Origin: Polytrichum commune
Taxonomy: Eukaryota > Streptophyta > Polytrichopsida > Polytrichales > Polytrichaceae
DNA length: 64,000 nucleotides
Reading direction: 5' to 3'
Assembly (NCBI GenBank): GCA_950295325.1
Contig: OX485809.1
Span: 9,300,001 to 9,364,000 of the forward strand
In this document: piece by piece, positions 29,559-64,000 of the stretch
Numbering within the stretch: position 1 is the first letter of the stretch
Layout: every line of letters starts with the position of its first letter
Program-made: the position numbers and the translations under genes
Notes under the pieces: model-generated
Database searches by the model: none
Told to the model about the DNA's origin: nothing
Seen by the model: the letters and a program-made list of their open reading frames with translations, nothing else

Positions 29559-29566
29559 CTATATAA
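29559..29566 (+). promoter_or_regulatory. Probable TATA box of the 5' LTR
   Basis: CTATATAA lies about 700 bp into the LTR, followed by a CT-rich stretch (CCCTCATTCTTCCCTCACTC) of the kind seen at plant transcription starts. If used, transcription would begin about 30 bp downstream and mark the U3/R boundary. This is inferred from sequence only. Confidence 0.5.
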
Positions 29567-30076: not shown

Positions 30077-30265
30077 GGTTCATGAAGGAGCCGGGTTTAT
30101 GAAGGAGCTGGGTTTGTTTAGTTAGAAAGTAAAGAGTTGGGTTTATGAAGGAGCTGGGTTTGTTTAGTTAGAAGCTAAGGAGCTGGGTTCATGAAGGAGC
30201 TGGGTTTATGAAGGAGCTAGGTTTATGTAATTAGAAAGTAAAGAGATGGGTTCATGAAGGAGCTT
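30077..30265 (+). repeat. Variable tandem repeat inside the 5' LTR
   Basis: Variants of ATGAAGGAGCTGGGTTT recur, some joined by a TGTTTAGTTAGAA-type linker and some head to tail. The right LTR has a longer version (39084-39341), so the number and order of units differ between the two LTRs of the same element. Confidence 0.85.
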
Positions 30266-30625
30266 AGTAGATAGCCTACCTAATTAGCTCATAGACAAGT
30301 AGTTAGTTACATTATGCTAGTTAGTGTTATGTGTGGCTTTCACAAGTAAATGTATTTGAGATTGACTATAGAGAATAGTGTTTTTTTTAACACTTGCATC
30401 CTCTCTTTAAAAATAAACCACGTGCACAACTTAATGGAGAATGTGGAGCACTATCGCGATGGCAAGACAAAGGAAGCAAAGACCAAAGTTAAATCCAAGA
30501 CCACTTGAAGGGTGAACCTTGCACTATGGACTCATCCAAGTCCAAATCCAATACCGCGGAGGAATGTGAGCCCAAACCCACTACTCGGACTACGGACGCT
30601 TAAGGGTGGGGGGTTTGGCCTCACA

Positions 30626-34500: not shown

Positions 34501-37500
34501 GGCATTGGTGGGAGTCGTCCATCCCGAAGGTCAAAGGGTTGTTATAGATTCGGGCTCGGGAAGTCTAGGTCCTAATTTTTACAATTATGGGGATAATGGG
34601 GATTATGCCCAATGGCTAAGGGAGTACCCCGAGTCCGAGGTTGATGTAATGGTTACATTTCACCAAGTAGGCTTAGGGAGTGAATTTCCTAGTGTTAGTT
34701 TAGGAGAGGGCTCATTGTTGGAGCCATGTGAGGTGCTCACCGAGGAAGAGTGGGTTAGCGGTGGGTTAACACCTTGGGTAGATGACGTGGAAGAGGGTGA
34801 GGTTAGTTTAATTCATGTAGATGGGACTCAAGAGGAGGATGTGATTATTGAGTCATCGAAATTGGAGGAGCCTTTACATTTCAAGACCACGTCTACGGGG
34901 ATAGTTGTAGGTCAAGATGTGAAAGATTACCCCAATGTGCCTTCCGATTGGTATCGGAACAAAGAGGAACAAGCACATGTGTCGGAAGCGGATTGGCGGT
35001 ACGTGGATGTGAAATTAAAGGATGGAAAAACCCGACAAATGAAGATGGGCTCCAAATTGGGGGAGAAAGAGGTTAGGGAGTATAGCAATTTGGTGGATGA
35101 GTTTAGTGATACTTTTGCATGGTCCTACGATGAGCTTAAGGGAATTCCTAGGGAAATGGTAGAGCACCGGATTCCTTTAATTCCGGGGGCGAGGCCAATT
35201 AGACAAAAGGAGAGGAGGATGAATCCTCAATTGCAATTGTTGGTGAAAGCGGAATTGGAAAGGTTATTGAAGGCCGGGTTTATCAAGCCGGTGGAAATCA
35301 CGGATTGGGTTTCTCCTATGGTCTTAGTAAAGAAAAAAAATGGGAAATTAAGGGTTTGTGTCGACTATAGGAAATTGAATTCGTGCACACAAAAGGATCA
35401 CTTCCCCTTACCTTTTATCACCTTGTTGCTTGAGGAGGTTGGAGGTCATTCGCGATATACCTTTATGGATGGGTATGCGGGTTATAATCAAATTTCCATA
35501 GCCCTCCAAGATATCCATAAAACGGCTTTTACTACACCTTGGGGTACTTTTGTGTGGGTAGTGATGCCATTTGGGTTATGTAATGCCCCGGCTACTTTCC
35601 AACGATTAGTAATGTATATCTTCACCGACTTGTTGTTCAAATGCATGACCGTCTTTGTGGACGATTTTAGCACACAAAGTAATGTGGATGATCACCTACA
35701 TTGTGTTAGGGAGGCATTGGTTAGGTGTAGGAAGATGAGGTTAGCATTGAACCCGGATAAGACATTTTTGGGAGTGAATAAGGGAGTGTTGTTGGGTTAT
35801 GTTGTTAGTGAGAAAGGTAGAGAACCCGATCCGGATAAGATTGCGGCCATAAGCGACTTGGCAACTCCAACCAATTCCAAGGGGATCTCTAAGTTGTTAG
35901 GACATGTGGGATGGTACCGGGAACTTATTCCTAATTTTTCAAAGATAGCGGTGCCCATTACCCATTTGCTCAAAAAGGATGTCAAATTCGAGTGGACGGA
36001 TGCTTGTCAAAAAGCCTTTGAGGAATTGCGGGATAGGTTGAGCACCTATCCGGTGTTGATACCACCCAATTGGGGTAAACCTTTTCACGTCTATTGTGAT
36101 GCTAGTAATGTGGCAATAGGGAGTGCGCTTTGTCAAGCAACGGGAGAAAAAGAGAAGGATCAACCTATAGCTTATGCGAGTAAGCAATTGACCCCCGCCG
36201 AAAGAAACTACTCTACAACGGAGAGGGAGTGCCTAGCCATGGTGTTTTCCGTTAAAAAGTTTAGGCATTACCTCATGTGCAACCCGGTTGTATTTTTTGT
36301 TGACCACATGGCTATCAAATATCTAATTAACAAGGCGGAGTTAAGTAGTAGGTTAGCTAGGTGGGTTTTGTTATTAGAAGAATTCGACTACACGGTGGAA
36401 TATAAACCGGGTCGTATGCATTTACAAGCGGACCACTTGTCTAGGTTGTCGGAGGAGATAGGAAAAAATCCGGTAAATGATATGTTAGTAGATGATAGCC
36501 TCTTTGTGGTCACTTCTACACCGGAGTGGTATGCGGGCATAGTGGAATTTCTAACAACCCACAAGTTGCCCAAAGAGTGGACAAAAGAAGAGAGAAGGAA
36601 GGTGAGGGTAAATAGTAGGCAATTTGTTGTAGTGGGCCATAGGTTGTTTAGAAGGGGGTCCGATGGTATTTTACGACGATGCGTGTCAAAAACGGAGGTT
36701 GAAGCGATTTTAATCGCTTGCCACGATAGCGCTTGCGGCGGTCACTTCGCGGGTCAACTCACCGGGCAAAAAATACTTAGAGCGGGCTACTTTTGGCCTA
36801 CACTATTTAAGGACGCCCATGACTATGTAAGGAAATGCGACGCTTGCCAACGGTATGCCCGAGACGACCTTAGAATGGAGATGCCTTTACATGTATCATT
36901 ACCCTTAATTCCTTTCGAAAAATGGGGCATCGACTATGTGGGTGAGGTCCATCCCCAATCTTCAAAAGAAATGAAATATATTGTGGTGGCAACCGAGTAC
37001 CTCACCAAGTGGGCGGAAGCCAAAGCGGTGAAGACCGACACGGCGGAACACGCGGCAACATTTATGTACGAAAACATAATTTCGCGGTTCGGGGTGCCGA
37101 AGATCCTAGTAAGCGATAGGGGTACTCACTTTTTGAATGACTTGATTCGAGAGATGACAGAGAAATTTAAAATTGATCACCGGAAGACTACTCCCTACCA
37201 CCCACAAACCAATGGACAAACGGAAAGGGTTAACGGAATTTTGGTGAGTATACTACGCAAGACGGTTATAGACTCGAAGCGGGATTGGGATACGAAACTA
37301 ACGGCGGCACTTTGGGCATACCGTACAACCTATAAGGTAACTACGCGTGCTACACCATTTTTCTTAGTCTATGGTCTTGAAGCGACACTACCAATCGAAT
37401 ATGAAGTCGAGTCACTTAGGGTGGCCGTGAGTACGAGACTTACCGAAAGTCAATCCTTACGAAATCGACTAACCGATTTGGAAGCACTTGACGAAGGGAG

Positions 37501-37774
37501 GAGAATGGCGGCTCAACATATTGAGGCAATCCAAAGAAGGAGAAAGATTACTTTCGACAAACGACATAAGAGAAGGGCCCTAATACCGGGAATGATGGTC
37601 ATGATTCAAGACGCACGAAAGCTTGAATTTCCGGCGAAATTCAATGCGGTATGGTTAGGACCTTACCTTGTCTATGAGGTCTTTCCTAATAATTCAATTC
37701 AATTGGAAACGTTGAATGGTGAGCTCTTTCCTACCCGTACATCGGGAAGTAGATGTAAGGAGTACCGAGCTTGA
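31535..37774 (+). CDS. Ty3/gypsy Gag-Pol polyprotein, intact, Athila/Tat-like
   Basis: One uninterrupted 2079-codon frame encodes all proteins needed for retrotransposition. A PPIPPIP repeat lies near residues 109-126. The Gag domain spans about 145-290 (YEWYRDH, FLNEFRP), with a CCHC knuckle at 432-445 (CVQCGQPGH) and a second Cys/His cluster near 517. The protease motif VDGGSSLNIL has its Asp at 852. Reverse transcriptase has VDYRKLN, MPFGLCNAPATFQR and FVDD (first Asp 1376). RNase H has CDAS (Asp 1522), ERE and FVDH. Integrase has an HHCC zinc site from about 1730 and a complete DD35E triad at Asp1800, Asp1861 and Glu1897, then a GPY-type LGPY. There is no chromodomain. Gag and Pol are in one frame. 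A Met lies at codon 1; the out-of-frame ATG 5 bases upstream gives no long product. The RT and protease motifs point to the Athila/Tat side of plant gypsy elements, which is inference. No clear polypurine tract is visible between the stop and the right LTR. Confidence 0.96.
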   Translation: MQGRTRSQKPSLIVGLEKSTRKRRSSKISDRLEQDNVRIESCLNVEPRTRSILDTLELGAQLEEEITPSKLSGETSSENYTLREEFPVEVDRGLLNSSPVTMAEERGMDPPPIPPIPPIPPIPPIDPLVRPRGLPIVVPQNLAAMDMPSHLPKFYGTKDEDPSRHMERYIERLASFLITDPGYWLVWFPTTLEGEAYEWYRDHAEGHFRGWEQLQREFLNEFRPEVGQSTALRALSSLKQGREEEISAYIRRFDLVCTRFVGTMLNDDMLKQFFIQGFFKSGTIRGVLERNPLTLADAKRAARDIENLDKDHERLWRREDELIPQFIPIRPRVVAVEPAKYENQIPYAIVYTGPRPLAVREPAPLLALPAPRTDPHLEEVERRLGASQLGFQEAMIKQMQSLTDQMSLMIRSQQPGPPPPVESGRHSSGLWCVQCGQPGHTRQFCRSGQNRDQRGNGNPPQQNQRGQAPPHYGNGSNRGPQPRGQGGKNLEKKEFHPFCGRWHAQGQCWSEGQEFNCSNCGGSHPSDTCRQPDKIINVPYPVANPQQQARDNMRGARPQGVPANELRPPNLYYDHSNARQTFHPPVGLQTTTGYIPIQNRQGVPPNVSNGRQAPPTDPGPSNSQDVRFMDGVLEATCDDMLPLPTKIGEEQSQWPPHTNAITYELVKGKGVVEEAPALAVTTRARRGDAPLEVGIGEQGNYSSDEEINLSELDRVARRATKDVERENIILQDRERTNAVHDLDNSDVGEWEGPGVPVDEFDVVGNSKVERSTGYDLWADLSTLKADITFGQLLEISPTARKTLKEGMPVHKRMRKVKAKIAARIQSQGGRDVKAIEIEVVIVDKVVPNVLVDGGSSLNILPEDTMKKLGLGLTGPSPLVINMANQSSTTPLGMIKDCRMTTGGEEYLVTFHVIKMHSNKDTFPILLGRPWLRMANAMVNWGGPKPSITYGPEGNRVIVSIGSLEGWMKKEMYLPLEKEIDDLNENEIGKALVGVVHPEGQRVVIDSGSGSLGPNFYNYGDNGDYAQWLREYPESEVDVMVTFHQVGLGSEFPSVSLGEGSLLEPCEVLTEEEWVSGGLTPWVDDVEEGEVSLIHVDGTQEEDVIIESSKLEEPLHFKTTSTGIVVGQDVKDYPNVPSDWYRNKEEQAHVSEADWRYVDVKLKDGKTRQMKMGSKLGEKEVREYSNLVDEFSDTFAWSYDELKGIPREMVEHRIPLIPGARPIRQKERRMNPQLQLLVKAELERLLKAGFIKPVEITDWVSPMVLVKKKNGKLRVCVDYRKLNSCTQKDHFPLPFITLLLEEVGGHSRYTFMDGYAGYNQISIALQDIHKTAFTTPWGTFVWVVMPFGLCNAPATFQRLVMYIFTDLLFKCMTVFVDDFSTQSNVDDHLHCVREALVRCRKMRLALNPDKTFLGVNKGVLLGYVVSEKGREPDPDKIAAISDLATPTNSKGISKLLGHVGWYRELIPNFSKIAVPITHLLKKDVKFEWTDACQKAFEELRDRLSTYPVLIPPNWGKPFHVYCDASNVAIGSALCQATGEKEKDQPIAYASKQLTPAERNYSTTERECLAMVFSVKKFRHYLMCNPVVFFVDHMAIKYLINKAELSSRLARWVLLLEEFDYTVEYKPGRMHLQADHLSRLSEEIGKNPVNDMLVDDSLFVVTSTPEWYAGIVEFLTTHKLPKEWTKEERRKVRVNSRQFVVVGHRLFRRGSDGILRRCVSKTEVEAILIACHDSACGGHFAGQLTGQKILRAGYFWPTLFKDAHDYVRKCDACQRYARDDLRMEMPLHVSLPLIPFEKWGIDYVGEVHPQSSKEMKYIVVATEYLTKWAEAKAVKTDTAEHAATFMYENIISRFGVPKILVSDRGTHFLNDLIREMTEKFKIDHRKTTPYHPQTNGQTERVNGILVSILRKTVIDSKRDWDTKLTAALWAYRTTYKVTTRATPFFLVYGLEATLPIEYEVESLRVAVSTRLTESQSLRNRLTDLEALDEGRRMAAQHIEAIQRRRKITFDKRHKRRALIPGMMVMIQDARKLEFPAKFNAVWLGPYLVYEVFPNNSIQLETLNGELFPTRTSGSRCKEYRA

Positions 37775-38535
37775 CTAGGCAACTTACCCTTGGAGCAAGA
37801 GATGTTTGGATTCATCCCCCGATGGTCGCCAATTATGTGAGCCCAAAAGGGTGCCCACATTTAGTCTTAGACCCTTGAAACGTTAGTTGATGCACTTTGA
37901 AGTAGCATGTTACTTCATAAAAATATAAAAAGAGTGAAATGTTAGTCTTAGAAGTACCATGTTGTAAGAGGCTAGGATGTGAGTTGTTATTGTGTTTTTA
38001 CCTTCGGAAGGATTTGAGTGAATGAGGATAGGTAAGGAGAACTTGGATTGAGTAGTTAGTGAGTAGGCTAGTACAAATGGATGGAGACAACCAAAGTGAC
38101 TCAAGAGGCAAGTGCATTCGAATTGGGATGAATGGAGGATCACATGGAGCGCACAAGTGGACCACCTCATCATGGCCACTTAATGGGGAAGGCCCAAGGA
38201 AGAATGCAAGGTGGAGGATAAGCAAATTCTCAAAGCACCAATCAAATCACGAGTTAAGCATCGTGGTTTGAATTAAGTGGTGAGCGACGATTTGGGAAAG
38301 TAAGGGGAGAAAGTTATGGCGGCGGAAAGCGAAGGAGGCTAAGTTTGGGTTGAAGCATTCCAAGTTTGGTAAAGTGTGGTAGGTAGAAAGCCAAGGCTAG
38401 TTAAATGTTCGAATTAGGATCCTTGTTGATCATTTGAGGGAGGAAGACTTAGAAGATAGGATTGGCGCCTACTAAGTAGGAGGAAATCTCAAGGGCTTAT
38501 CGTGAGCCTTGAGGGTGCTCACCCCCTCAAGCTTA

Positions 38536-38543
38536 CTATATAA
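38536..38543 (+). promoter_or_regulatory. TATA box copy in the 3' LTR
   Basis: This is the counterpart of the CTATATAA in the left LTR, at the same offset. From the 3' LTR it could drive read-through into flanking DNA. The function is inferred from sequence only. Confidence 0.45.
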
Positions 38544-39083
38544 TCCCTCATTCTTCCCTCACTCATCCTCTCTTTCCTTTGTGCTCCAAGGCACCCCACG
38601 AGTTATAAGTGTGGGTGTGGGAAGCCATATTGGAGCACATGTGTGTGCTTAGTTTTTAGTTTGAGAGCCAAGGCTTGTTAGCCTTGAAGAGGGCTTGACC
38701 TCTTGGTAGAATTAGTGTTGACGTGAAGGATTTTAAAGTTAATTCATGATTCCAATTTGTGGTACTTAAAGTTCATGTTTTGAATACACGTGGTTGCAAG
38801 TTCCATGTTTAAGAGTTGAGCACTTGATGTTGTGATGAGTGCAAAAATATACTTGTGTGGATTAGTTAGTCTTAGTGAAGTTAGGAAATTCTCTCTCTCC
38901 CTCTCTTCTCTAGGAAGTTGAGCTCTTAGAGCTCGGGAAAAAATGTGGAATTAGGTAGGGGACTTAGTGGGATTAGTGGAATTAGGTAGGTGAATTAGGG
39001 GGAGGCCTTGGAGAAGCTCTCTTTTGTTCATTTTCTGGTTTTTGTGGTTGAGGGTGGAGAAACTTAGTTAGAAGTAGCCGCAG

Positions 39084-39341
39084 CTAAGGAGCTGGGTTTA
39101 TGAAGGAGCTGGGTTTATTTAATTAGAAGTAAGGAGCTGGGTTTATTTAGTTAGAAGTAAGGAGCTGGGTTTATGAAGGAACTGGGTTTGTTTAGTTAGA
39201 AGCTAAGGAGCTGGGTTCATGAAGGAGCTGGGTTTATGAAGGAGCTGGGTTTGTTTAGTTAGAAGCTAAGAAGCTGGGTTTATGAAGGAGCTAGGTTTAT
39301 GTAATTAGAAAGTAAAGAGATGGGTTCATGAAGGAGCTTAG
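39084..39341 (+). repeat. Expanded tandem repeat inside the 3' LTR
   Basis: Repeated AAGGAGCTGGGTTTATG and AAGGAGCTGGGTTTGTTTAG-type units span about 258 bp here, against about 190 bp in the left LTR. The repeats probably expanded or contracted after, or by recombination since, insertion. Confidence 0.85.
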
Positions 39342-39563
39342 TAGATAGCCTACCTAATTAGCTCATAGACAAGTAGTTAGTTACATTATGCTAGTTAGTG
39401 TTATGTGTGGCTTTCACAAGTAAATGTATTTGAGATTGACTATAGAGAATAGTGTTTTTTTTTAACACTTGCATCCTCTCTTTAAAAATAAACCACGTGC
39501 ACAACTTAATGGAGAATGTGGAGCACTCTCGCGATGGCAAGACAAAGGAAGCAAAGACCAAAG

Positions 39564-39898
39564 GTGCGAGGGAGAGATTGACATAAGTCACATAAGTATT
39601 TCTTAATACTTAAAGGCTTATGTACGGTATGGAGACACCAAGTGAGACCTCTTATAGTAGCGATACGGAATACACAAGTGATAGTTCAAGTGGTAGTATA
39701 GAGTCAACGGCACGGACTCCATTTAGGAGAGGGATATCCTTAAGGGCTTGTGTAGCTAAAGCAGCCGGATGGACGTTAGAAGCAAACAAAGACAAAATAG
39801 CACCCGAGCATAAGGAGGTTAAAATAACATAATTAACTTGTGCATTCTCCACATACGTATTGAAATCGTACATTGAGTTGTTAAAAGTGAAATTCCAG
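39564..39898 (+). other. 335-bp GT...AG-bounded segment unique to the 3' LTR
   Basis: The left LTR reads ACCAAAG directly joined to TTAAATCC. Here the same two flanks are separated by 335 bp that begin GTGCGAG and end ATTCCAG. The borders fit a spliceosomal intron (GT...AG), and equally a deletion in the left LTR at a shared AG. Inside is a 70-codon frame (39620-39832) rich in Ser and Thr in its first half and basic after that, with no family I recognise. Whether it is an intron, an insertion, or ancestral sequence lost from the left LTR cannot be settled from one element. Confidence 0.7.
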
Positions 39899-40035
39899 TT
39901 AAATCCAAGACCACTTGAAGGGTGAACCTTGTACTATGGACTCATCCAAGTCCAAATCCAATACCGCGGAGGAATGTGAGCCCAAACCCACTACTCGGAC
40001 TACGGACGCTTAAGGGTGGGGGGTTTGGCCTCACA

Positions 40036-40386
40036 CCCTTTCACCAACGGCGCCACAAGTCCTGGGTGTCACTCCGGGGTCCCCCTTGTGCCCATGGTGT
40101 TTCGGGCACTCCTCATGGAGAGGTGCGCGACACACACCTCCGATTGAGGTGTTTTTGAACATTCTAGAATCTACATGCCATAAGCTAAGCATAGCTCGTG
40201 GCCTTACCCTTGTGCCCCCTAGTCTCCGTGGGTGGGAGGCGTTCCCAACGCCCGCGGCCCTCACCCACACTAGGATCACTTGGGCCCTCTCACCAACGGC
40301 GCCACAAGTCCCGGATGTCACTCCGGGGTCCTCCTTGTGCCCATGGTGTTTTGGGCACTCCTCATGGAGAGGTGCACGACACACAT
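40036..40386 (+). repeat. Tandem 249-bp repeat at the insertion site of element 1
   Basis: The block CACCAACGGCGCCACAAGTC through CACTCCTCATGGAGAGGTGC appears at 40036 and again at 40285, a period of 249 bp. Between them lies the CTCCGATTGAGGTG...ACTTGGGCCC part that also forms the left flank of the element (28702-28858). Element 1 therefore inserted inside one unit, at the CTTGGGCCC position. The unit is GC-rich and non-coding as far as I can see. Confidence 0.75.
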
Positions 40387-53385: not shown

Positions 53386-54001
53386 GCTACTAAGATGGGT
53401 GGACCAAGCTAGTCTTGCATAGGCCAATCCAAGATATAGGACGGCAGGTACCCTTTTAATGTCCTAAAATTCTCTTAAAGTTTGAGAGGACAAAAGAGGA
53501 ATTCCCAAAAGTTTCACCCACTTTTCCAAATACGCTTCAAATGTACGACAAGACAACAAACTCTTAATAGAAAGTCTTTTGAAAGAGGGATCAAACCCAC
53601 GGTTTTTTCTTTCTTTGAGAAACTTGACGTATAACTCTATTCACTAAAAAACGTTTTTTGATACATTGACGTACAAGTAGAAGCCTTTGAAGCATGGATG
53701 TTGGTCAAGTATATCACAAGGTGATATCTCATAGGGATTTGGAGTTCATTTGAAGTTAACATTTAATAAATAAATAAATAAATAAATATCTCGAGATTCT
53801 ACAATTTCCATACAAATTTTTCAATATTCTAATGGTTTGTACAAAATGGCTCTTGTAAAGTTAGCATGCCCTGAGATATTCAATATGTGATCAGGGGTTG
53901 TCCTCGGCTTGGGGGGTCTGGTGGGTTGTCCTTGGTGGGAGTCGGTTGGTAGTTCTTTTCACGTGACAGTGTATCGCGCCCGAGGGTCCCCACATCCCCT
54001 T
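53386..54001. other. Intergenic, no gene seen; edge of the DNMT retroelement locus
   Basis: It contains an (AAAT)n tract at 53764-53788 and a short GC-richer stretch at 53890-54000. The minus-strand frame 53880-54128 crosses the 107-bp direct repeat and has no domain. The exact left border of element 2 is not identifiable. Confidence 0.4.
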
Positions 54002-54108: not shown

Positions 54109-54203
54109 ATGAGGGTTTCTCTCTCCAAGCTGAAGAAACTAAAATGTCTCCTTACAAAGCTTAAGAAACTCTAAAATTCACACACAAGAGTCAAACTATC
54201 TCT

Positions 54204-55167
54204 CACTCCACGAAGGGAGAATCCAAGAGTGCAAGTGGTGGAGAAAGAATGCAAAGGCTTTACTCATAATCTACTACACCATAGCCATGAGAAAGCAACA
54301 ACAAGCTCTCTCTCTCTCAAAACACACTCACAAGACTTGACTTGACAACAATGACAAGTCAAGAGGCCTTCCTCTCCATACAACCCCAATCCTATGTGGA
54401 GTTCATCCATGGAGTGGATGAACAACTAACTAGGACTCCCAACGGAGTCCGTTACTCATCCCAACACACATGGACTCCTAGTGGAGTCCATTTACTCCTA
54501 AATTGACGTGACTTAGCCTCCGATGTCACCTCATGTGACAACTGTCGTGTAAACTAAGATCGTTAAACACAACAGATCGAGTGTCGTTGTCAACATCAAT
54601 TAGCAAAATAAAATAGCAAACTAAAATGCTAAACAACCACCTCTTCAAGTGTCCCCACTAGCAGATAAGGAGCCCCTCCAATCGGCTAGGAACAAACACA
54701 CTCATCGATAGAGTTGTTGAACATGATGAAGTTGTTGCTACATCTATACATATTTAATTGGGTAGTAGTAATCGAAGGAATTAAACTCGTAATTGACAAA
54801 GTAATCCAAGAACTGTAGGCTGGGTACAATGTGAGCCCCATCCTTAATCGCCTTCAACAATTAATGTTGAATTCTTGGATAACTCTTTCAATGTGGTCTT
54901 AATTCCATAAAATTTCCAACCAACTAAATAACAACTTCACCACTAAAACATGTGGTAAACATCCACAAAATTCTCAATCATGACCATTAACGGCCACGGA
55001 ATGAGAGGCTTTCCGACAACGAGGATAAACCCAATTGCCAGAAGGAAGAGTAAAAAGGGGAGGTGTCAAACATGCCATGTGCCATCCACTTTGACATTGG
55101 TCGTACAATAACATTGTTGCAGCTCCTTTCTTCTCTCCACAAACATAACAAGGCAAACCCTGTGGTA
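54204..55167 (-). repeat. Left arm of ~965-bp inverted repeat (3' end of element 2)
   Basis: This stretch is the reverse complement of 63035-64000 with only scattered differences by eye. On the minus strand it holds the PHD finger coding region, the stop codon, the 3' non-coding region and probable LTR sequence. Similarity starts sharply at about 55167 (GTGGTA). Its outer limit is not known because the partner arm runs off the window. Confidence 0.92.
54543..54649 (-). repeat. 107-bp direct repeat, proximal copy
   Basis: This is the proximal partner of the copy at 54002-54108 and lies inside the left inverted arm. On the minus strand it follows the non-coding 3' region after the PHD stop codon. 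Confidence 0.8.
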
Positions 55168-55370
55168 CAACCGCCAACTCGGGATGCACAGAGCCGTCGA
55201 TGGGAAGGTGACATGGAGCACAATTCTTTGAATGCTCACGACATTCCCGTCCATCCTTGCCTTCAAGCAATAATATACCACTTGGCAAGACATTTTTTAC
55301 CCGCAAAATCGTGCGCCCAGCCTTGACATCCAATGTCGTAGGCGCCTCCCGTTGCAAGTAAACATAATCC
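54974..55370 (-). pseudogene. Element 2 polyprotein C-terminus with degenerate PHD finger
   Basis: This frame follows the integrase core after a one-base shift in a G run at 55371-55374. Its first part (LQREAPTTLDVKAG, VLPSGILLLEG) is the C-terminal tail of the integrase region. It is followed by CHLPIDG and then a PHD finger, a zinc module that in host proteins reads histone tails: CYVC, then an YDQC, then WHMAC, then WVYPRC. Two of the eight zinc ligands (third and seventh) are Tyr here and Cys in the opposite-strand copy at 63041-63228, so this finger should not fold normally. Stop codon at 54974-54976. PHD fingers are not a usual part of plant gypsy elements; many carry a chromodomain in this position instead. 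Confidence 0.88.
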
Positions 55371-56187
55371 CCTTGGAAAATCTACGAACCTGAGGTCGAT
55401 AAGCTCCACTGCGGATCCGGGCATACCGTAATGTATCACGATGTTGAGCAATATTCAAGTTCTCCATAGCCATAGGCATGGCCTTTTGGAAGAACGTTGC
55501 TTGGTCATGAAGACATTGAGCCCAAACATCTGGATCATCCAAGTTTACCACGGGAGCCAATTTCTCTCGCACTGAGCTAGGTAAAATTGGTTCCCGTCCA
55601 TACAAGAGTTGGTAAGGACTATAGGATGCCAAAGATGTTTGCTTGCTGAAACGATAACCCATTGCTATCCATGGTAACATCAAGTCCCAATCGCGATGGT
55701 TGCCATGAAGCAATCCATACTTCCGCAAACCGCGCTTAACCGTCTGAACAACTCGTTCAACTAAGCCATCTGCCTCAGGGTGATCTCTGGAAGTTGTCCG
55801 ATGATCAATCAAAGCCTTGGTACACAAAGCCTCGAAAGATCCAAGGAATTCTCTCCCTTGACCCGTCAACACCTCTGCAGGTGCTCCAAATCGTGCCAAA
55901 ACTCGATCAAGACATGCCATAGCCGCCAATTCTGAGGAATTTTGGGGAAGAGCCACGAGTTCAATCCACTTACTAAAATGCTCCACCATCACAAACACAT
56001 ACTTGGAACCACGTGGAGTGATAGTAAGCGGTCTGGCAAAATCCAAAGACCAACGATATCCCAAGCCCATAATATGTAAAGGCTGAAGTTGAGGTGACAA
56101 AGTATTAAAACTTGACCTGACCCGGTCACATACTTCACACCGAGAAACATAAGTGGCAACCTTTTGATACATACCAGTCCACCAATA
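55297..56187 (-). pseudogene. Element 2 integrase core (inactivated)
   Basis: The frame continues from the previous fragment after the TAA at 56188-56190. It contains the last half of the HHCC zinc site (CEVC), the first catalytic Asp (WSLDFA), and the Glu in DGLVER. The second catalytic Asp is replaced: the codon at 55861-55863 encodes Gly in LTGQGREF, and the Glu follows after 34 residues. Towards the end (SGAYRPQVRRF) the frame runs into unrelated residues because of the one-base shift near 55371. With a stop upstream and a missing catalytic residue, this integrase cannot work. The catalytic role, joining cDNA ends to target DNA, is known for the family. Confidence 0.9.
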
Positions 56188-56655
56188 TTAGTTGCGCAAC
56201 ATAGAGTGCGTCCTTCGCACTCCAAAATGTCCAAGCTCCTCGTGCACTTGCCGCACCAAAGAATTTCTTTGATCTGGCCTTGGAACGATGCATCTCGTTC
56301 CGTTCGGCCACACACGAAATAACAAGCTGTTTGTCCAACGAAACCTTGTTATCCGGTGACTAACTCTATCTCGCTCCATAGCAGATAGTCCAAGAGGAAA
56401 TATCCCGTGTTGAAGTTTGTGCAAGACCGCCTGGTCTTCCCACACATCACTAACAACGAGAGATTTATCAACCTCCTCATCTTGTTCTTCTACAAGGATC
56501 TCAGCAGCCAATCCCGACATCATTGTGAGATATGTGGCAGCATGCCAACCCGGAACTGCCTCACGATCACAATTTCCATGCCACCTGGCTCCAGTTAAAT
56601 CCTCATCTGAAGGACTTGGATTGCGAGACAATCCGTCTGCATCCAAGTTGGCAAT
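56188..56655 (-). pseudogene. Element 2 RNase H-integrase linker and HHCC start
   Basis: This part of the same frame lies between the TGA at 56656-56658 and the TAA at 56188-56190. It begins with DADGLSRNP, the conserved end of the RNase H region in gypsy elements, and ends with the His half of the integrase zinc site (VHEELGHFGVRRT). Between them is an acidic linker. It is not a separate gene; only the two stop codons set it apart. Confidence 0.85.
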
Positions 56656-58116
56656 TCATGCTCGGTGAACAACTTCAAAATCATATTCCTGAAGTAACAA
56701 TGCCCACCTAGCAAGTTTCCCGGTGAGCTTATCTGATTCCATAAGCCATTTTAAAGGCTGATGATCAGTCACCAAAGTAAACTTTTGCCCATACAAATAA
56801 GGTCGAAAATGTGCAATGGCCCAAACGGCCGCCAAGGCCTCGCCTTCATAAGAAGAATAATTAGATTCAGTACTATTATTGCTTCTAGATGCATAAGCCA
56901 CCACATATTCCTTTCCCTCTTTATTCTTCTGTGTCAATACCGCTCCCAATCCCACTGCACTCCAATCCGTGTGCAATTGAAAAGCTCTAGACACATCCGG
57001 GCGTCGAAGCACTGGCGCTGAACCGAGCCTCTGCTTCAATGTATCAAATGCCTGTTGTTGTTCCCGACTCCAAATCCATGATTGGTCTTTCCCCGTGAGA
57101 ATGGTAAGAGGTTTGGCAATCAAACTAAAGTTTTTGACAAACCTCCTATAATAATTTGCCAATCCTAGAAATGCACGAAGCCGTGGTACATCACTAGGTG
57201 CGGGAATTTTGTGCAAAGCATCCACCTTCGCTTGTTGCACACCAAGACCGCCAGGAACAATCATATGGCCTAAATAGGGTAATTGATCATGGAAAAACTT
57301 ACATTTTCCATGATGTAAACGGAGTCCCCACCGTTGAAGTCGTTCAAATACAGCTTGCAAATGTCTCACATGATCATGTGGACTATTACTAAAGATGATA
57401 ACATCATCAATGTAACATCTAGCAAACGGCAAACCAGCCAATAATTGGTCCATCACCCGTTGAAATTCAGCTGGTGCATTCTTGAGACCAAATGGCAGAA
57501 ATTTCCAATGATAAAATTGATCTTTGCCATCTTTATCAATTCCCCAAAATGCGGTCTTCACCCAATCACCCAACAACAAAGGTAATTGGTGATAACAAGA
57601 CCTCAAATCCAGAGTGCTGAAGATTCTAGAAAATCCCAGTGCATCAAACAACTCCTCCGGCATTGGCATTGGATATCGATCCGACTTGGTCTTGCGGTTG
57701 ACTGGACGATAATCACCACACATCCGTTTTTCCGTCCAGTTGCCAAAAATATCCTTCTTTGACGGCATAACCGTGGCACAAGCATACTCTCCATTGGAGA
57801 GTTCAATCAATTCCGCTGCCAATAACTCTTGACATCGAGTTTGAACACCCAACCTTTCAGATGCACTAAGTCTGTACGGCCGTCTGAAAATAGGGTGGTC
57901 GTCCTCGAGTTGAATACAAACAGGTTTACCTTTATATCCTTCAAGATCATGAAGACTAAAGGCAAAACAATTACGGTAAGAGCGAATAAATGCCCGTACC
58001 TTTCGTGCTTCGGCACCAGTAAGCTTTGGCCCCACTTCAATTGGCCAATCGTCAAACTCCGTGGTTTCCTTCTTCATAGAAGGATTGCCACTTGGTGCCA
58101 GCACAGCCTGTGATTG
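56656..58116 (-). pseudogene. Element 2 reverse transcriptase and RNase H
   Basis: Both catalytic domains are well preserved between the stop codons at 58117-58119 and 56656-56658. RT motifs in order are CGDYRPVN, FSTLDLRSCYHQ, FLPFGLKNAPAEFQR and CYIDDVIIF (YIDD catalytic pair). RNase H shows HTDWSAVGLGA (Asp), YEGEALA (Glu) and VTDHQPLKW (Asp). The thumb/connection part has FLGLANYYRRF. It copies element RNA into DNA and removes the RNA strand, in the cytoplasmic particle according to family knowledge. The fragment has no ATG at its upstream end because it is the middle of a polyprotein. RT differs clearly from element 1 (YIDD and LPFGL here, FVDD and MPFGL there), so the two elements belong to different lineages. 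Confidence 0.93.
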
Positions 58117-58662
58117 CTAGTCCGTGGAGAGGGCAACACCTTTGCCCCCATCATCTGCACTTGAATCCAAATGCGTATCCTCTCCACTACAATCGGTTTG
58201 TGTAGCTAAATAGCTACCCACATATGAAGTATCACCAAGAAATAGAAGTGGAAACATTTTATGGGCCTCCAACTTCCCAAACTCTTGGGCCAAAGCCGAA
58301 AAAACACGTTGGGCTCGAAGCTCTTCCGCAACATGAAGTTTCAAAGGAAATAATCCCTCGGTGTCATTGACCTCAATGTGATCCTTGGATTGCGGCTCCA
58401 TTGCCTCCTGACCATTGTTCTCTGCCCTCAGAGTAAGCAATTGGTCATCCATACGTTGTTGAGCAGCAAGACAAATTCCAATTATCCACACAATGCTGTT
58501 AAAATCCATAGCTTGTCCCAATAGGAAACGTCTCTGACCTTCCTGAAACCCGTGAGTAGCCGTGGTACCTGTAAGAAAACCCATGGCGCGTTCCCGCTCA
58601 TCTGCCGTTGGCTGCTCATAAGTTTGGGATTTTGAATCCCAAACCATGCCAGGTCCACGAGA
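58117..58662 (-). pseudogene. DNA methyltransferase C-terminal motifs and linker to RT
   Basis: Same frame as the methyltransferase ORF, after two stops (58678-58680 TAG and 58663-58665 TGA). The first ~60 residues contain ERERAMGFLTG and, after EGQRR, FLLGQAMDFNSIVWII, which match the pattern of C5-methyltransferase motifs IX and X (a G(F/Y).. block, then LG.A..... near the C-terminus). These motifs help close the fold around the cofactor. After them comes a polar, acidic linker of about 110 residues without a recognised domain, up to the TAG at 58117-58119. The methyltransferase is therefore cut in two by nonsense codons between its target-recognition region and its last motifs. Confidence 0.8.
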
Positions 58663-58677
58663 TCAAAATGCAAAAGA

Positions 58678-61600
58678 CTATGGATATGTCACAAAAGTAG
58701 GTAGTGCACCTCTCGGAATTCCCACCTTGTTAATTAATGCAAATGGCAAGGTGTCACCCTTGGTAACTGCCAAGGAAACACGATGATCATCTAAAATGTC
58801 ATCCACTTTGCGATCCATAAGGCGGGGAATGCGGGCAATCGCCGCTGAAAGCACCCGAGGTGATACCAAGTTGGTCCAAAACCAACGAGGCCGATAAGCA
58901 AAGGATCCCAAAGATGCAGCATCCAGAAATGTTGGAGTACCCAGAATTTGGTTAATGTACTCACCATCCTTCACCACTTTGTGCCGGGTATCACCCAATA
59001 ATGGTACATTTTCGAAAATGTACCCCGGCGGAGTTGATTGGTGGGTAAACCACCATTGCGTCAATCGCGTCAAATCCGCAAACAAACTAGACCTAGGATC
59101 ATCCAATCCCTGGCCAGTTCCTGCCCGCGAATGGCCTTGACAAGGCCATCCTGCAATAATCAAATCCACGTGGCCCAACCTTCTCAAATCCTCATCACTA
59201 ATCATAGTGACATCTTGAGGAAGTTGACCACAGCATCCATGAATGACAGAGGCTGACAATTGTGCGGGGTATCTCAACAACAATTGTTGGATGTGGTGTC
59301 GGACGGCTCTGTTGGCTGCATACCCATTGTCCACATGAATATATCGCCACACTGTAATTCCAGCTTCCAACACTGCCGCCAAACCTGTGCCAATGCCTCC
59401 AAAGATCACCACAAGGACAATACCTTCAGGTGACGGTTGCCAACGAATGGGTTGAGCAAAAGAAAATGAGGATGAAGTTGGAGGTGCCTCTCCAAGCTCC
59501 AAATCCGCTACAATGTGTTGACAATGGTCGGATAACTTCTTAGGAGTTCGCCATGGTGGAGATGGATCCTTGAAATGTCGAGCAGGAATTTGAAAAGATG
59601 GTAAAAATTGTTGTTCTGCCGCATTACAAGTGTAGTCCATTGTTTCCTCCAATAAAACTGGAGCACAAGGCAAATCTGCAACTGAACCGCTGCAACCAAA
59701 CATTGCCTCCGCAACCATAGTCATAGCAGGGGCTGCAAATGTGACGGGAATAAATACCTTCCTGCCATCTCCAGTGGACCATCCCGGTCTAATCCATGCC
59801 TCTTCCGTCCAATTATCCAAACCAAAGCCAAGTGGGTAAAGAGCTTGCTGACCAACAAGTATATCATAGTTGGTAGCATTAGTAACAACACACTTCATTG
59901 ATAAATGAGTGTAAGTAGGCCCTACCCCCACATGAAAAATCAAACGTAGAGGTGCCTTGGTGTAACCTGTTGCACGTTCAGTGCCCCCTACTGAAGTCAC
60001 AATAGTAAATGGACAAGGATCCAAGCTTGCTGGCGTCAATCCAAGACTGTCAGCAAGTCCTTTGCCAATCATAACCGGTTGAGCACCGGAATCCATCATA
60101 ACTCTCAGTGGTGTAGCACGGATAGTGGGCATATCCGTGCGTGAAACGACAAACAGAGATTTGTCGTTCATCAGCCGTACAACTCCAGGTTGCAAATTAT
60201 GGCGTTCGCGAGCAGGCCTTGCAGAAATGTCTGCAAGATATGCCGCTCCCGAAGCATAATTCGAAAATGACGTATCCACTGCTGAAATTGATGCTGGAGG
60301 AATATCAGCTTGCTTACCAAAAGCAATGATCGCCGCATCCGCAAGACTCGTTCGCAAATTGGCTAAGTTTTCCACCTCCTCAGCCACAAGTACGTCAACC
60401 ACAGCTTGGGATACTTGAAGGGATGGCAAATCCGCCTTACCTTCTAACATTCTCCCAGCTAAATGAAAAACTGCAGCAGGCTTGAAATCCGAAGCCATAA
60501 ATTCCGAACCCGAGAAAATTGGCATATGGAGAATTTTATATGCCAATGCCTGTGTAACATCCTTCGAGATGGAATCCCCATCTCTCAAAGGTACAGGGTT
60601 TTTAGCCCCAACAACAGTGGTGTCTACCAATCCAAATGAAAGAGGTAAACGTGCTTGACCAATTTGATCAGTTGGTCCGGCATGGCGAGGATGTAGCACC
60701 TCGTTGCTACCACCACTCGTGGAAGCCACCGCATCTGCCAATGTTTGTGAGCGAGTAGAAGCCGCCGCCACCACCTCTCCGGCTGCTCCAAACATATACA
60801 TGTCCGAACCCGAGGTGCCACCACCCACATGCGGCTCAGAAATTTGAACAAAAGATGCAGAAGATTTGAGCTTTTGCTCAAGCTCTGCCACCTTAGCCTC
60901 AAGACTCTGCTCCCTTGGAGACTTTCCAGTGACATAACTGGTAGGCCGCATCTCAGGATGAAGTTGGAAACAATGATCCACATCGTGATTAGTGCCACCA
61001 CAATGGCTACATTTCAATTGTCTCTTCTTAGAATTGTCCCCAGCCCTTACTGGTTCCATCTTTTGTTTTAATTTTCCCAAAGGCTGAGTTTTCTTCTTCT
61101 TAGGACAATTGGGATCATTCTTCGAATGACCAGCTTCTCCACAACCCCAACAATGCAAAATCTTTTGCTCCTTGACGGGTTGAGTCTCAGCTAAACTACT
61201 AGTAGCTGTGACAATTCTTCTTGGTTTCGGACTCTCTGTCATCCAAGATACCATATCCATGGCATCATGTTGGCAAAGAGCTCGATCACATCTCTCAACC
61301 ACGGCAAACGCTTGTGCAAGCGTAACTCGGTCCTCGTAGTCGAGGATAATCCGAGGTGATGCCAACTCAAGTAGCCGCTTGTCAATCTTAGACAAAAAGA
61401 TTTTAACAAGCTGACTCTCAGCAAAAACACCTCCCGACTCCACAGCAAATCGCGCGAGTCGCGTACACATGGTCCGTGGAGTATTATCCTTCTCTCGGCG
61501 GAAATCCTGGATGCGCTGCATCTGGTCTCGCCGAAACCCACCATACTCCACTTCCAAATGTGCGACAAATTCAGTAAGGGGGTTAAACGGAGGTGGTGGA

Positions 61601-62214
61601 CCAACAGCCGTCAATGCTGCCTGTGTAGCACGTGCCACCCGTGAAAGGGTTGCCGTGCTACTGCTAGCCACCATTGGCCCAAGTGCCAGTTCCGTGTCCT
61701 TAGACTCCGCCGACGATTCCTCCTCCTTTAAGGTGGGTGGAGCTAAGGTAGCAACCGCCTCATCCTTAAGGGCTGAAATGAGCTCAACCCGAGCCTCCCA
61801 ATACTGCTCCACCTCCCGAAGTTGTCGTTGATGACCCTCTGTCCAGCGTTCATAAGTTTGGAGTGCCTCATACTCCAAATATTGAGGCAGAAGTTCAAAG
61901 GCATACCAATCATTGAAATTGGAAGACCTTTGGCGTTTCTCCTTAATCCAGGTACGAAACCGGAGTTTCCAATCGGGCAAGGAAATGCCCCCAGCTCGAC
62001 CTGAAAACCGATCACGCACTGAATTGTGACGATCGTCCTCCATTTCGTCGAACGTGCCGACACTCCAAATCCGAAGCCTACTAGTAGTATCCAACGCCGA
62101 AATAGGCTCAAAAGCCTCGTTGGTATCTACCTCTGGCTCAAGATTTGTGGTGTCCACGTCCTCCAAGTAATCTGGTGATGGAGATCGATAATATCGACTC
62201 CTAGTTTGCACCAT
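58678..62214 (-). CDS. Element 2 Gag-protease-DNA methyltransferase ORF (open, truncated)
   Basis: An open frame of 1178 codons from an ATG at 62214. Residues ~1-330 are Gag. Two zinc knuckles follow: CWGCGEAGHSKNDPNC near 353 and CSHCGGTNHDVDHC near 400. The protease motif MMDSGAQPVMIG has its Asp at 708. A C5 cytosine DNA methyltransferase domain begins near 925: motif I FGGIGTG (F938), motif IV GWPCQGHSRAG with the catalytic Cys at 1025, a GLDDPRSSLF segment, motif VI FENV (Glu 1068), and AYRPRWFWTN as motif VIII. Such enzymes transfer a methyl group from S-adenosylmethionine to cytosine. RPRWFW.N resembles DNMT3-type enzymes, while PCQG is the common form in other C5 enzymes, so I leave the subfamily open. 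The domain lies between protease and reverse transcriptase, a place where gypsy elements normally have nothing. The ORF ends at a TAG before the last methyltransferase motifs, so activity is doubtful. Confidence 0.93.
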   Translation of the reverse strand: MVQTRSRYYRSPSPDYLEDVDTTNLEPEVDTNEAFEPISALDTTSRLRIWSVGTFDEMEDDRHNSVRDRFSGRAGGISLPDWKLRFRTWIKEKRQRSSNFNDWYAFELLPQYLEYEALQTYERWTEGHQRQLREVEQYWEARVELISALKDEAVATLAPPTLKEEESSAESKDTELALGPMVASSSTATLSRVARATQAALTAVGPPPPFNPLTEFVAHLEVEYGGFRRDQMQRIQDFRREKDNTPRTMCTRLARFAVESGGVFAESQLVKIFLSKIDKRLLELASPRIILDYEDRVTLAQAFAVVERCDRALCQHDAMDMVSWMTESPKPRRIVTATSSLAETQPVKEQKILHCWGCGEAGHSKNDPNCPKKKKTQPLGKLKQKMEPVRAGDNSKKRQLKCSHCGGTNHDVDHCFQLHPEMRPTSYVTGKSPREQSLEAKVAELEQKLKSSASFVQISEPHVGGGTSGSDMYMFGAAGEVVAAASTRSQTLADAVASTSGGSNEVLHPRHAGPTDQIGQARLPLSFGLVDTTVVGAKNPVPLRDGDSISKDVTQALAYKILHMPIFSGSEFMASDFKPAAVFHLAGRMLEGKADLPSLQVSQAVVDVLVAEEVENLANLRTSLADAAIIAFGKQADIPPASISAVDTSFSNYASGAAYLADISARPARERHNLQPGVVRLMNDKSLFVVSRTDMPTIRATPLRVMMDSGAQPVMIGKGLADSLGLTPASLDPCPFTIVTSVGGTERATGYTKAPLRLIFHVGVGPTYTHLSMKCVVTNATNYDILVGQQALYPLGFGLDNWTEEAWIRPGWSTGDGRKVFIPVTFAAPAMTMVAEAMFGCSGSVADLPCAPVLLEETMDYTCNAAEQQFLPSFQIPARHFKDPSPPWRTPKKLSDHCQHIVADLELGEAPPTSSSFSFAQPIRWQPSPEGIVLVVIFGGIGTGLAAVLEAGITVWRYIHVDNGYAANRAVRHHIQQLLLRYPAQLSASVIHGCCGQLPQDVTMISDEDLRRLGHVDLIIAGWPCQGHSRAGTGQGLDDPRSSLFADLTRLTQWWFTHQSTPPGYIFENVPLLGDTRHKVVKDGEYINQILGTPTFLDAASLGSFAYRPRWFWTNLVSPRVLSAAIARIPRLMDRKVDDILDDHRVSLAVTKGDTLPFALINKVGIPRGALPTFVTYP

Positions 62215-62368
62215 AAAATAATCCCTTGAGTACCTGCAACTATCTACAAGGTAATGGCAACCTGCACCTGTTGCGGACTATCTAAATGGCAATACCTTGC
62301 CAAATGCCAAATGCTTATGCCCCCAGAATTCCAAAATTGTGCAAAGGTTTGAGATTGGTAATTAAAAT

Positions 62369-62652
62369 TAAAAATCAGCGTTGAAAATGCTCATTTCCAA
62401 GGTGATTATGAACTCCAATCAACAAACTAAGTGCACCAATGGACTCCTAGGAAGATTTCACACAAATTAGGCTCAAATTTCACTCCAATCGGAGTTAATT
62501 TGCTCCCAAAAACAAAAATCAGCGTTGAAATTAGCAATTTCAGCAATGATTTTGACTTCCAATCAAAAATCCAATTACACCATTGGATTCCTTGGCAAAT
62601 TTCACACAAAATAGGCTCAAATTTCACTTCAATCGGAGCTAGTATCCCCCCA
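62369..62652 (-). repeat. Diverged ~147-bp tandem duplication
   Basis: Two units share AAAAATCAGCGTTGAAA, CTCCAATCAA-like, CCAATGGACTCC/CCATTGGATTCC, GATTTCACACAAA, TAGGCTCAAATTTCACT and CAATCGGAG. Unit starts are about 62369 and 62516. The units differ by roughly a fifth. The overlapping frames 62427-62678 (minus) and 62431-62724 (plus) mirror this duplication and are not convincing genes. Confidence 0.8.
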
Positions 62653-62703
62653 AATTTGAGCCTCAAAGTTTGTGACAATGAAATGCCAAATTTGAAAGTG
62701 AAA

Positions 62704-62965: not shown

Positions 62966-63034
62966 GGGGGAGGCCAGGTCTTACCTTGAAAAGGGGGGGG
63001 GGCCAGGCTGGCGCCGCCCGCCTTTTGTCAAGTT

Positions 63035-64000
63035 TACCACGGGGTTTGCCTTGTTATGTTTGTGGAGAGAAGAAAGGAGCTGCAACAATGTTATTGTGCG
63101 ACCAATGTCAACGTGGATGGCACATGGCATGTTTGACACCTCCCCTTTTTATTCTTCCTTCTGGCAATTGGGTTTGTCCTCGTTGTCGGAAAGCCTCTCA
63201 TTCCGTGGCCGTTAATGGTCATGATTGAGAATTTTGTGGATGTTTACCACATGTTTTAGTGGTGAAGTTGTTATTTAGTTGGTTGGAAATTTTATGGAAT
63301 TAAGACCACATTGAAAGAGTTATCCAAGAATTCAACATTAATTGTTGAAGGCGATTAAGGATGGGGCTCACATTGCACCCAGCCTACAGTTCTTGGATTA
63401 CTTTGTCAATTACGAGTTTAATTCCTTCGATTACTACTACCCAATTAAATATGTATAGATGTAGCAACAACTTCATCATGTTCAACAACTCTATCGATGA
63501 GTGTGTTTGTTCCTAGCCGATTGGAGGGGCTCCTTATCTGCTAGTGGGGACACTTGAAGAGGTGGTTGTTTAGCATTTTAGTTTGCTATTTTATTTTGCT
63601 AATTGATGTTGACAACGACACTCGATCTGTTGTGTTTAACGATCTTAGTTTACACGATAGCTGTCACGTGAGGTGACATCGGAGGCTAAGTCACGTCAAT
63701 TTAGGAGTAAATGGACTCCACTAGGAGTCCATGTGTGTTGGGATGAGTAACGGACTCCGTTGGGAGTCCTAGTTAGTTGTTCATCCACTCCATGGATGAA
63801 CTCCACATAGGATTGGGGTTGTATGGAGAGGAAGGCCTCTTGACTTGTCATTGTTGTCAAGTCAAGTCTTGTGAGTGTGTTTTGAGAGAGAGAGAGAGCT
63901 TGTTGTTGTTTTCTCATGGCTATGGTGTAGTAGATTATGAGTAAAGCCTTTGCATTCTTTCTCCACCACTTGCACTCTTGGATTCTCCCTTCGTGGAGTG
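63035..64000 (+). repeat. Right arm of ~965-bp inverted repeat (3' end of a second element-2 copy)
   Basis: This is the reverse complement of 54204-55167, reading in plus orientation through the PHD finger, stop, 3' region, one 107-bp repeat unit and probable LTR sequence. It is still matching at the last base of the window, so its true length is unknown. Upstream of 63035 the sequence is unrelated to element 2's integrase region, so this copy is truncated at its 5' side within the coding region. Confidence 0.92.
63041..63228 (+). pseudogene. PHD finger coding fragment with intact zinc ligands
   Basis: The frame open from 62986 becomes homologous to element 2 at GLPCYVCGEKK. It encodes a full C4HC3 PHD finger: CYVC, CDQC, WHMAC, then WVCPRC, followed by RKASHSVAVNGHD and a TGA at 63226-63228. 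All eight ligands are present, unlike the minus-strand copy. The upstream codons (MKRGGGQAGAARLL) come from the GC-rich junction and are not homologous. As a 5'-truncated piece of a polyprotein it is a relic, though the finger itself is the better guide to the original sequence. PHD fingers in host proteins commonly bind histone H3 tails; binding by this one is inference. Confidence 0.85.

What the first reader, a model, noticed from the sequence alone, without database searches (positions are those of the whole stretch)
58117..62214. Retrotransposon that encodes its own cytosine DNA methyltransferase
Seen: in one gypsy-type frame, a C5 methyltransferase domain with FGGIGTG, GWPCQ, FENV, RPRWFW.N and a C-terminal LGQA block lies between the protease (MMDSGA) and the reverse transcriptase (YIDD). 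Known: cytosine methylation normally silences plant transposons, and methyltransferase-bearing retrotransposons have been reported from charophytes and dinoflagellates (de Mendoza and colleagues, 2018). Inference: the element may methylate its own cDNA or its surroundings, either to limit damage to the host or to hide in methylated chromatin. The position between protease and RT, together with a PHD finger, may define a distinct family.
Basis: partly seen in the sequence, partly recalled or inferred. Interest (0 to 1): 0.92.

Follow-up and report, generated by a model that had tools for sequence, protein, structure and literature searches.

The report
Plant retrotransposon carrying a DNA methyltransferase
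A decayed copy of a plant jumping gene that carries its own cytosine DNA methyltransferase; its relatives occur in mosses and liverworts, and the enzyme seems to be made together with the particle coat protein rather than with the copying enzyme, so the element may mark its own DNA before it inserts.

Summary
On the minus strand, 62214-58117 is one ORF (Gag, protease, C5 methyltransferase), followed in frame by RT, RNase H, integrase and a PHD finger. The enzyme scores PF00145 at 2.5e-11; profile, fold and motif order point to DNMT3. It belongs to a family: 162 database proteins held, 160 with the enzyme, some named Marchantia, Calypogeia, Sphagnum or Closterium. The window copy is dead; an intact relative (L029) was found. 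Two points change the reading. (1) The stop between enzyme and RT is probably not damage: both copies read UAG-CAA-UCA, the plant-virus type I readthrough signal (UAG-CARYYA), so the enzyme would be made in Gag amounts and RT-IN-PHD only by readthrough. (2) The 3' end reads B-A-B, like the DIRS-type repeats that de Mendoza et al. 2018 describe for KnitGypsy-Dnmt3 of Klebsormidium. So it is the same kind of element, in land plants, as a variant. Three relatives carry the enzyme between RNase H and integrase. Methylation of its own cDNA is the likeliest role but untested. No Klebsormidium sequence could be compared, the host genome could not be searched, and the host is unknown.

The parts
58117..62214 (-). 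ORF1: Gag - protease - DNMT3-type methyltransferase, ATG to TAG stop; this copy has two premature stops, at 58678-58680 and 58663-58665
   Evidence: the relative L029 has an uninterrupted ORF1 of 1346 codons, read across the contig's end overlap
61096..61173 (-). Gag zinc knuckle (CWGCGEAGHSKNDPNC)
   Evidence: weak match to retroviral nucleocapsid chains (E 0.026); sequence checked
59839..60123 (-). retropepsin-like aspartyl protease (MMDSGA)
   Evidence: PF13650 3.3e-4 and PF13975 7.1e-4, both below curated cut-off in this copy
58447..59454 (-). C5 cytosine methyltransferase, DNMT3 type, motifs I (FGGIGTG), IV (GWPCQ), VI (FENV), VIII (RPRWFW), X (LGQA) in linear order
   Evidence: PF00145; PDB profile; AlphaFold model of the L029 homologue and fold comparison; domain limits from the family HMM
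58111..58119 (-). TAG CAA TCA: amber stop plus CARYYA, type I readthrough signal between methyltransferase and RT
   Evidence: same nine bases in L029; none of the four other in-frame stops nor the ORF2 terminator has it
56656..58116 (-). start of ORF2: reverse transcriptase (RVT_1 57259-57735) and RNase H (56683-56997), up to a premature TGA at 56656
   Evidence: RVT_1 2.1e-30, RT_RNaseH 4.1e-39
55297..56655 (-). integrase (H2C2 zinc domain, split by a premature TAA at 56188, and rve core 55777-56058)
   Evidence: rve 4.5e-13; Integrase_H2C2 5.1e-6 and 7.5e-5 on the two sides of the stop
54974..55381 (-). integrase C-terminus and PHD finger (PHD 55016-55150; two zinc-ligand cysteines are tyrosine in this copy), in a shifted frame
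   Evidence: PF00628 1.3e-6; alignment
54543..54649 (-). repeat B, first copy, just after a purine-rich tract; ends ..GACA
54109..54540 (-). repeat A, begins TGTC, two bases (GT, 54541-54542) after B
   Evidence: same B-GC-A junction in L029
54002..54108 (-). repeat B, second copy (99% identical), ends ..GACA, taken as the 3' end of the element
63035..64000 (+). 3' part of a second copy in the opposite direction: PHD (63052-63186, the two cysteines kept), B (63553-63657), A from 63660, running off the window
   Evidence: 98.8% identical to 54204-55167 inverted; PF00628 2.4e-11

Best explanation
A decayed copy of a streptophyte Ty3/gypsy family that carries a DNMT3-type methyltransferase. ORF1 (Gag-protease-methyltransferase) ends at a leaky amber codon; RT-RNase H-integrase-PHD are made by occasional readthrough. 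The enzyme is therefore made in Gag amounts and built into the virus-like particle. There it most likely methylates the double-stranded cDNA before integration, so that the new copy arrives already methylated, while the PHD finger on integrase binds an H3 tail and biases where it lands. Shown: domain content, family, DNMT3-like fold, conserved motifs, the stop with its CARYYA context in two diverged copies. Inferred: readthrough itself, packaging, cDNA as substrate, PHD targeting.
Confidence: 0.5

Rival explanations
1. The methyltransferase acts in trans on host chromatin or on RNA (genomic RNA in the particle), not on the element's own cDNA.
For: De Mendoza et al. discuss RNA methylation for SymbioLINE and host-wide effects (PMC5890265 section 11). 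C5 folds can act on RNA (tRNA-methylating DNMT2-type chains are among the PDB hits, 28.4 bits or less).
Against: Closest class by sequence and fold is DNMT3, a DNA enzyme; DNMT2-type chains score far lower. Being part of the Gag or Pol polyprotein confines most of it to the particle (inference).
Confidence: 0.25
2. The stop between methyltransferase and RT is one more lesion or a plain ORF boundary, and RT is made by re-initiation; no programmed readthrough.
For: The window copy has four other in-frame stops. Ten database rows have enzyme and RT in one protein.
Against: The same TAG-CAA-TCA stands at the same place in L029, whose two ORFs are otherwise open; the DNA around it is 76% identical, and ORF2 follows in the same frame with no gap. 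67 database rows end 50-180 residues after the enzyme without RT, though protein ends in contig pieces are not all true stops.
Confidence: 0.2
3. The 3' repeats are an ordinary LTR (B+A, about 541 nt) followed by a truncated tandem LTR, so there is no DIRS-like structure.
For: L029 (a contig whose ends overlap by 127 nt) fits both readings. B+A could also be read to start TG and end CA (by eye). Tandem LTR elements are said to be common in plants (PMC11899658, title and abstract start in a search listing only). A 10-nt match to the start of A lies about 34 nt beyond the second B.
Against: The second B ends exactly at the half-site GACA of the GACA-NN-TGTC junction seen in the window and in L029, and K. 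nitens DNMT-gypsies are described with DIRS-type repeats.
Confidence: 0.35
4. The methyltransferase is a single accidental insertion in one copy.
For: None found.
Against: 160 database proteins carry the enzyme, with catalytic residues largely kept; Marchantia, Calypogeia, Sphagnum and Closterium are named among them.
Confidence: 0.01

Closest known systems
KnitGypsy-Dnmt3 of Klebsormidium nitens (de Mendoza et al. 2018, PMC5890265)
   Same: Ty3/gypsy domain set, DNMT3-type methyltransferase without DRM rearrangement, DIRS-like repeats at least at the 3' end (text and legend of Fig. 4)
   Different: Here the enzyme closes the Gag ORF before a UAG-CARYYA stop, and ORF2 ends in a PHD finger, a word that does not occur in the 2018 main text. 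Named relatives here are bryophytes and Closterium. No K. nitens sequence was available, so descent was not tested.
SymbioDIRS-Dnmt3 and SymbioLINE-Dnmt of Symbiodinium (same paper)
   Same: retrotransposon with a C5 methyltransferase; SymbioDIRS has the A-coding-B-A-B pattern and two coexisting domain orders
   Different: SymbioDIRS uses a tyrosine recombinase; this element has a DDE integrase (rve)
Chromoviruses (Ty3/gypsy with chromodomain; definition recalled)
   Same: chromatin-reader type domain after integrase
   Different: PHD finger instead of a chromodomain; no chromodomain among the Pfam matches
Tobamovirus-type (type I) stop readthrough
   Same: UAG followed by CARYYA (PMC5382211 passages)
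   Different: a retroelement Gag/Pol boundary instead of a viral replicase; activity not tested

Membership tests
Ty3/gypsy LTR retrotransposon | RT - RNase H - integrase order with rve integrase | tested here: met
   (L029 ORF2)
Ty3/gypsy LTR retrotransposon | direct terminal repeats flanking the element | tested here: inconclusive
   no 5' direct repeat of the 3' end found in the window; L029's overlapping ends suggest that A (or B+A) is shared by both ends
KnitGypsy-Dnmt3 | DNMT3-type methyltransferase, linear motif order | tested here: met
KnitGypsy-Dnmt3 | A-coding-B-A-B repeats | tested here: inconclusive
   B-A-B at the 3' end; the 5' A is not in the window
KnitGypsy-Dnmt3 | methyltransferase in the Pol ORF | tested here: inconclusive
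   here it is in ORF1, in frame with Pol but before a leaky-type stop; the figure of the paper is not held
KnitGypsy-Dnmt3 | clusters with the K. nitens sequences | not testable with these tools
DNMT3 methyltransferases | closer to DNMT3 than to DNMT1, DNMT2 or bacterial enzymes | tested here: met
   bits; Z (best 25.5, best other 22.1; some DNMT3 rows tie with bacterial ones). No tree with host plant DNMT3 was possible
DIRS retrotransposons | tyrosine recombinase | tested here: not met
   rve integrase present; no phage-integrase model among the matches of the ORFs scanned
Chromovirus | chromodomain at the integrase C-terminus | tested here: not met
   PHD finger there instead, no chromodomain match
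Type I (tobamovirus-like) readthrough | UAG followed by CARYYA | tested here: met
Type I (tobamovirus-like) readthrough | measured readthrough | not testable with these tools
   needs a reporter assay

The most novel reading that the evidence does not exclude
The element has put together a portable de novo methylation unit: a DNMT3-type enzyme supplied in Gag amounts inside the particle, and a PHD finger behind integrase most like H3-tail readers of the CHD4, KDM5 and ATXR5 kind. New copies would arrive pre-methylated in already quiet chromatin: a retroelement that spreads by silencing itself, kept since before land plants split from Closterium-like algae, with the enzyme later moved once within Pol.
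Probability: 0.2. Interest if true: 0.85.

Novelty: new variant of a known kind. Interest (0 to 1): 0.6.

Why it matters
DNA methylation is a main host weapon against transposons, yet here a transposon lineage keeps a methyltransferase under selection. Its presence in proteins annotated from Marchantia and Sphagnum brings the question into plants that can be studied in the laboratory, and the leaky stop makes a testable claim about dosage: the enzyme would be a particle component, not a rare Pol domain. One paper says that methylase-encoding transposons are absent from land plants such as tracheophytes (PMC6338049, one passage); the named bryophyte relatives would narrow that to vascular plants at most.

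Tried and rejected
Own genome: the genome search (own, PF00145) was asked 14 times and never answered, so copy number, full copies and the host stay unknown. Viral contigs: the ORF1 alignment gave 28 loci, 29-58% identical over short methyltransferase stretches, taken as distant C5 enzymes of viral contigs and not used further; L029's ORF2 gave none. Genome contigs: 1 locus, L029, a eukaryotic type of element in a cyanobacterial MAG record, taken as mis-binned. One database hit, P0032, is likewise filed under a bacterial MAG (Obscuribacterales). tRNA and Rfam scans of the window: nothing.

Accidental insertion: rejected. The inverted repeat at 63035-64000 as an inherent DIRS-1-like inverted terminal repeat: not favoured, because self-comparison of L029 shows no inverted repeat but a 28-nt palindrome and the junction has a run of ten G at 62993, a possible misjoin; better read as a second, 5'-truncated copy. 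Adenine-methyltransferase idea for the extra C-terminal domain of P0158 and P0160: no Pfam match even at E 1. Primer-binding site and limits of A in L029: looked for by eye, not settled. PHD fingers in gypsy elements: one search listed 5 papers, none read. One search for readthrough with CARYYA in retrotransposon papers: none found.

Absence from print: no report of bryophyte elements of this kind was seen in searches. These are listings, some capped (20 of 106, 12 of 15, 10 of 20). Of the listed papers, PMC5890265 was read in abstract, sections 6, 9, 10, 11 and passages; PMC6338049, PMC12344493 and PMC6453930 in passages only. PMC12344493 says 'streptophytes' without naming species in the passages seen.

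Rows dropped: the enzyme tree used 28 of the 162 held database proteins, plus window, L029 and DNMT3A; its DNMT3A row is pieced from printed segments. The RT tree left out P0162 and P0070 (partial) and kept P0155 at 45% of columns. P0029 (the window piece) was left out of the motif and tail counts. P0021 and P0024 hold no enzyme match. One search had 162 hits of which 120 were listed.
Full report
What is there. On the minus strand, ORF1 runs from ATG 62214 to TAG 58117, exactly the coordinates of the finding. It encodes Gag with zinc knuckles, a retropepsin-like protease (59839-60123) and a C5 methyltransferase (58447-59454). ORF2 continues in the same frame: RT and RNase H, integrase, and a C-terminal PHD finger. 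The methyltransferase scores PF00145 at 2.5e-11. The copy is dead: stops at 58678 and 58663 inside the enzyme, at 56656 and 56188 in ORF2, a frame change near 55300-55381, and two zinc-ligand cysteines of the PHD changed.

It is a family. Three protein searches gave 28, 162 and 38 hits; one search lists 120 of its 162. Together 162 different database proteins are held, of which 160 match the family's enzyme profile. The closest, P0001, is 97% identical over 76% of the query region and breaks off after motif IV. Named sources are Marchantia polymorpha, Calypogeia fissa, Sphagnum fallax, Sphagnum troendelagicum and the alga Closterium sp. NIES-53; one hit is filed under a bacterial MAG, and most others have no name. 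In the alignment rows that cover each motif, the motif IV cysteine is kept in 118 of 120, the ENV glutamate in 131 of 142 and asparagine in 138 of 141, the two motif VIII arginines in 127 of 141 and 130 of 140.

An intact relative. One contig in the prokaryote collection, L029 (record CADCWO010000201.1, filed as a cyanobacterial MAG; I take it as mis-binned), carries a relative with open frames. Its ends overlap by 127 identical bases, so it closes to 9158 nt. ORF1, read across that overlap, has 1346 codons and ORF2 1047. Window against L029: pN/pS is 0.24/0.74 in Gag, 0.21/0.79 in protease, 0.19/0.77 in the methyltransferase, 0.37/0.64 in the tail after it, 0.08/0.68 in RT-RNase H and 0.06/0.79 in integrase. 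Synonymous sites are saturated or nearly so, but amino-acid change is clearly held back in the enzyme.

The stop between enzyme and RT. In both copies ORF1 ends TAG-CAA-TCA and ORF2 follows without a gap in the same frame. UAG-CARYYA is the type I readthrough signal of plant viruses (PMC5382211, passages). None of the four other in-frame stops of the window copy, nor the ORF2 terminator, has it. Of 111 database rows with a complete enzyme C-terminus, 98 have no RT match, 10 run on into RT and 3 have RT first. Of the 98, one (P0096) runs into integrase, 67 end 50-180 residues after the enzyme and 30 end sooner, many of them pieces of short contigs. Tail lengths recur (90 residues in 11 rows, 105-106 in 6, 110-112 in 6, 119-124 in 7, 138-139 in 4), as a conserved stop would give; this is support and not proof, since protein ends say nothing about the stop's context. 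If readthrough is used as in viruses, the methyltransferase is made with every Gag chain, and RT-IN-PHD only occasionally. This dosage is not general: P0154 (2358 residues) has all domains in one open frame, and P0153 all but the PHD.

Two positions. P0158, P0160 and P0161 carry the enzyme between RNase H and integrase; P0096, a piece without RT, has it next to integrase too. The four form one group in the enzyme tree (100/96, 31 rows), and the three with RT form one in the RT tree (98/94, 12 rows). In the enzyme tree the window groups with P0002, P0005 and L029 (100/100); in the RT tree with L029 (100/100) and then Marchantia (100/99). A single move within Pol fits, if the root lies outside the group. 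The PHD finger is found in both arrangements.

PHD finger. Its nearest solved relatives by profile are CHD4, KMT2C, KMT2D, KDM5 (Lid, 5A, 5B), PHF12, WSTF and ATXR5 (60 of 103 matches shown). Several of these read H3 with unmethylated K4 (recalled, not from a call). That makes integration into H3K4-unmethylated chromatin a reasonable lead, not a result.

Repeats. The 3' end of the window copy is B (54649-54543), GT, A (54540-54109), B (54108-54002). B ends in GACA and A begins with TGTC; L029 has the same junction with GC between; in the plus-strand copy B ends GATA. The legends of PMC5890265 describe A-coding-B-A-B for SymbioDIRS and a repeat structure like that of DIRS for KnitGypsy-Dnmt3. 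The 5' A is not in the window: where it should be, the 3' part of a second copy stands in the opposite direction (63035-64000), after a junction with a run of ten G. A plain LTR of B+A followed by a truncated tandem LTR is not excluded (confidence 0.35).

What it does. De Mendoza et al. showed that SymbioDIRS enzymes methylate CG de novo in yeast, while the K. nitens enzyme gave an inconclusive negative (section 10); they suggested methylation of retrotranscribed DNA (abstract and section 11). The anatomy here fits that better than action in trans, since the enzyme is part of the Gag or Pol polyprotein in the arrangements seen. Confidence by step: family and domains 0.98; DNMT3 class 0.9; readthrough 0.75; enzyme in the particle 0.65; cDNA as substrate 0.45; PHD targeting 0.35.

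Novelty. The kind has been known since 2018. New against what I could read: relatives in mosses and liverworts, the Gag-side position with a readthrough-type stop, the PHD finger, and two enzyme positions in gypsy elements. Seven searches showed no report of the bryophyte elements (listings, some capped). No K. nitens sequence was reached, so common descent with KnitGypsy-Dnmt3 is open. The host of the window was not identified.

Noticed in passing
window 31514-37774 (+): A second Ty3/gypsy element with one uninterrupted ORF of 2086 aa (Gag, protease, RT, RNase H, integrase; no methyltransferase or PHD match), with similar stretches 28702-30625 and 37833-40385 on its two sides; RT about 30% identical to that of the methyltransferase element.
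   Followed up: partly
P0158, P0160, P0161 C-termini: After the PHD finger there is a further stretch of about 250-300 aa with 'ILDPW'-like and 'DAVVT.PP'-like motifs that looks by eye like a Dam-type adenine methyltransferase; Pfam finds nothing in the two tested (P0158, P0160) even at E 1.
   Followed up: partly
window 53931-54001: About 34 nt beyond the second B the flank has TGTCACGTGA, the first ten bases of A in the plus-strand copy: chance, target preference, or a remnant of A, which would weaken the reading that B ends the element.
   Followed up: no
window 62364-62654: Two diverged tandem copies of about 147 nt (79% identical) in the leader upstream of ORF1.
   Followed up: no
window 62985-63034: Run of ten G and a GC-rich stretch at the junction with the inverted second copy; a possible assembly misjoin.
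   Followed up: no
window 4087-4706: Imperfect palindrome: 4217-4683 matches its own reverse complement at 89% over 472 columns, with 98% identical pieces at 4087-4217 and 4576-4706.
   Followed up: no
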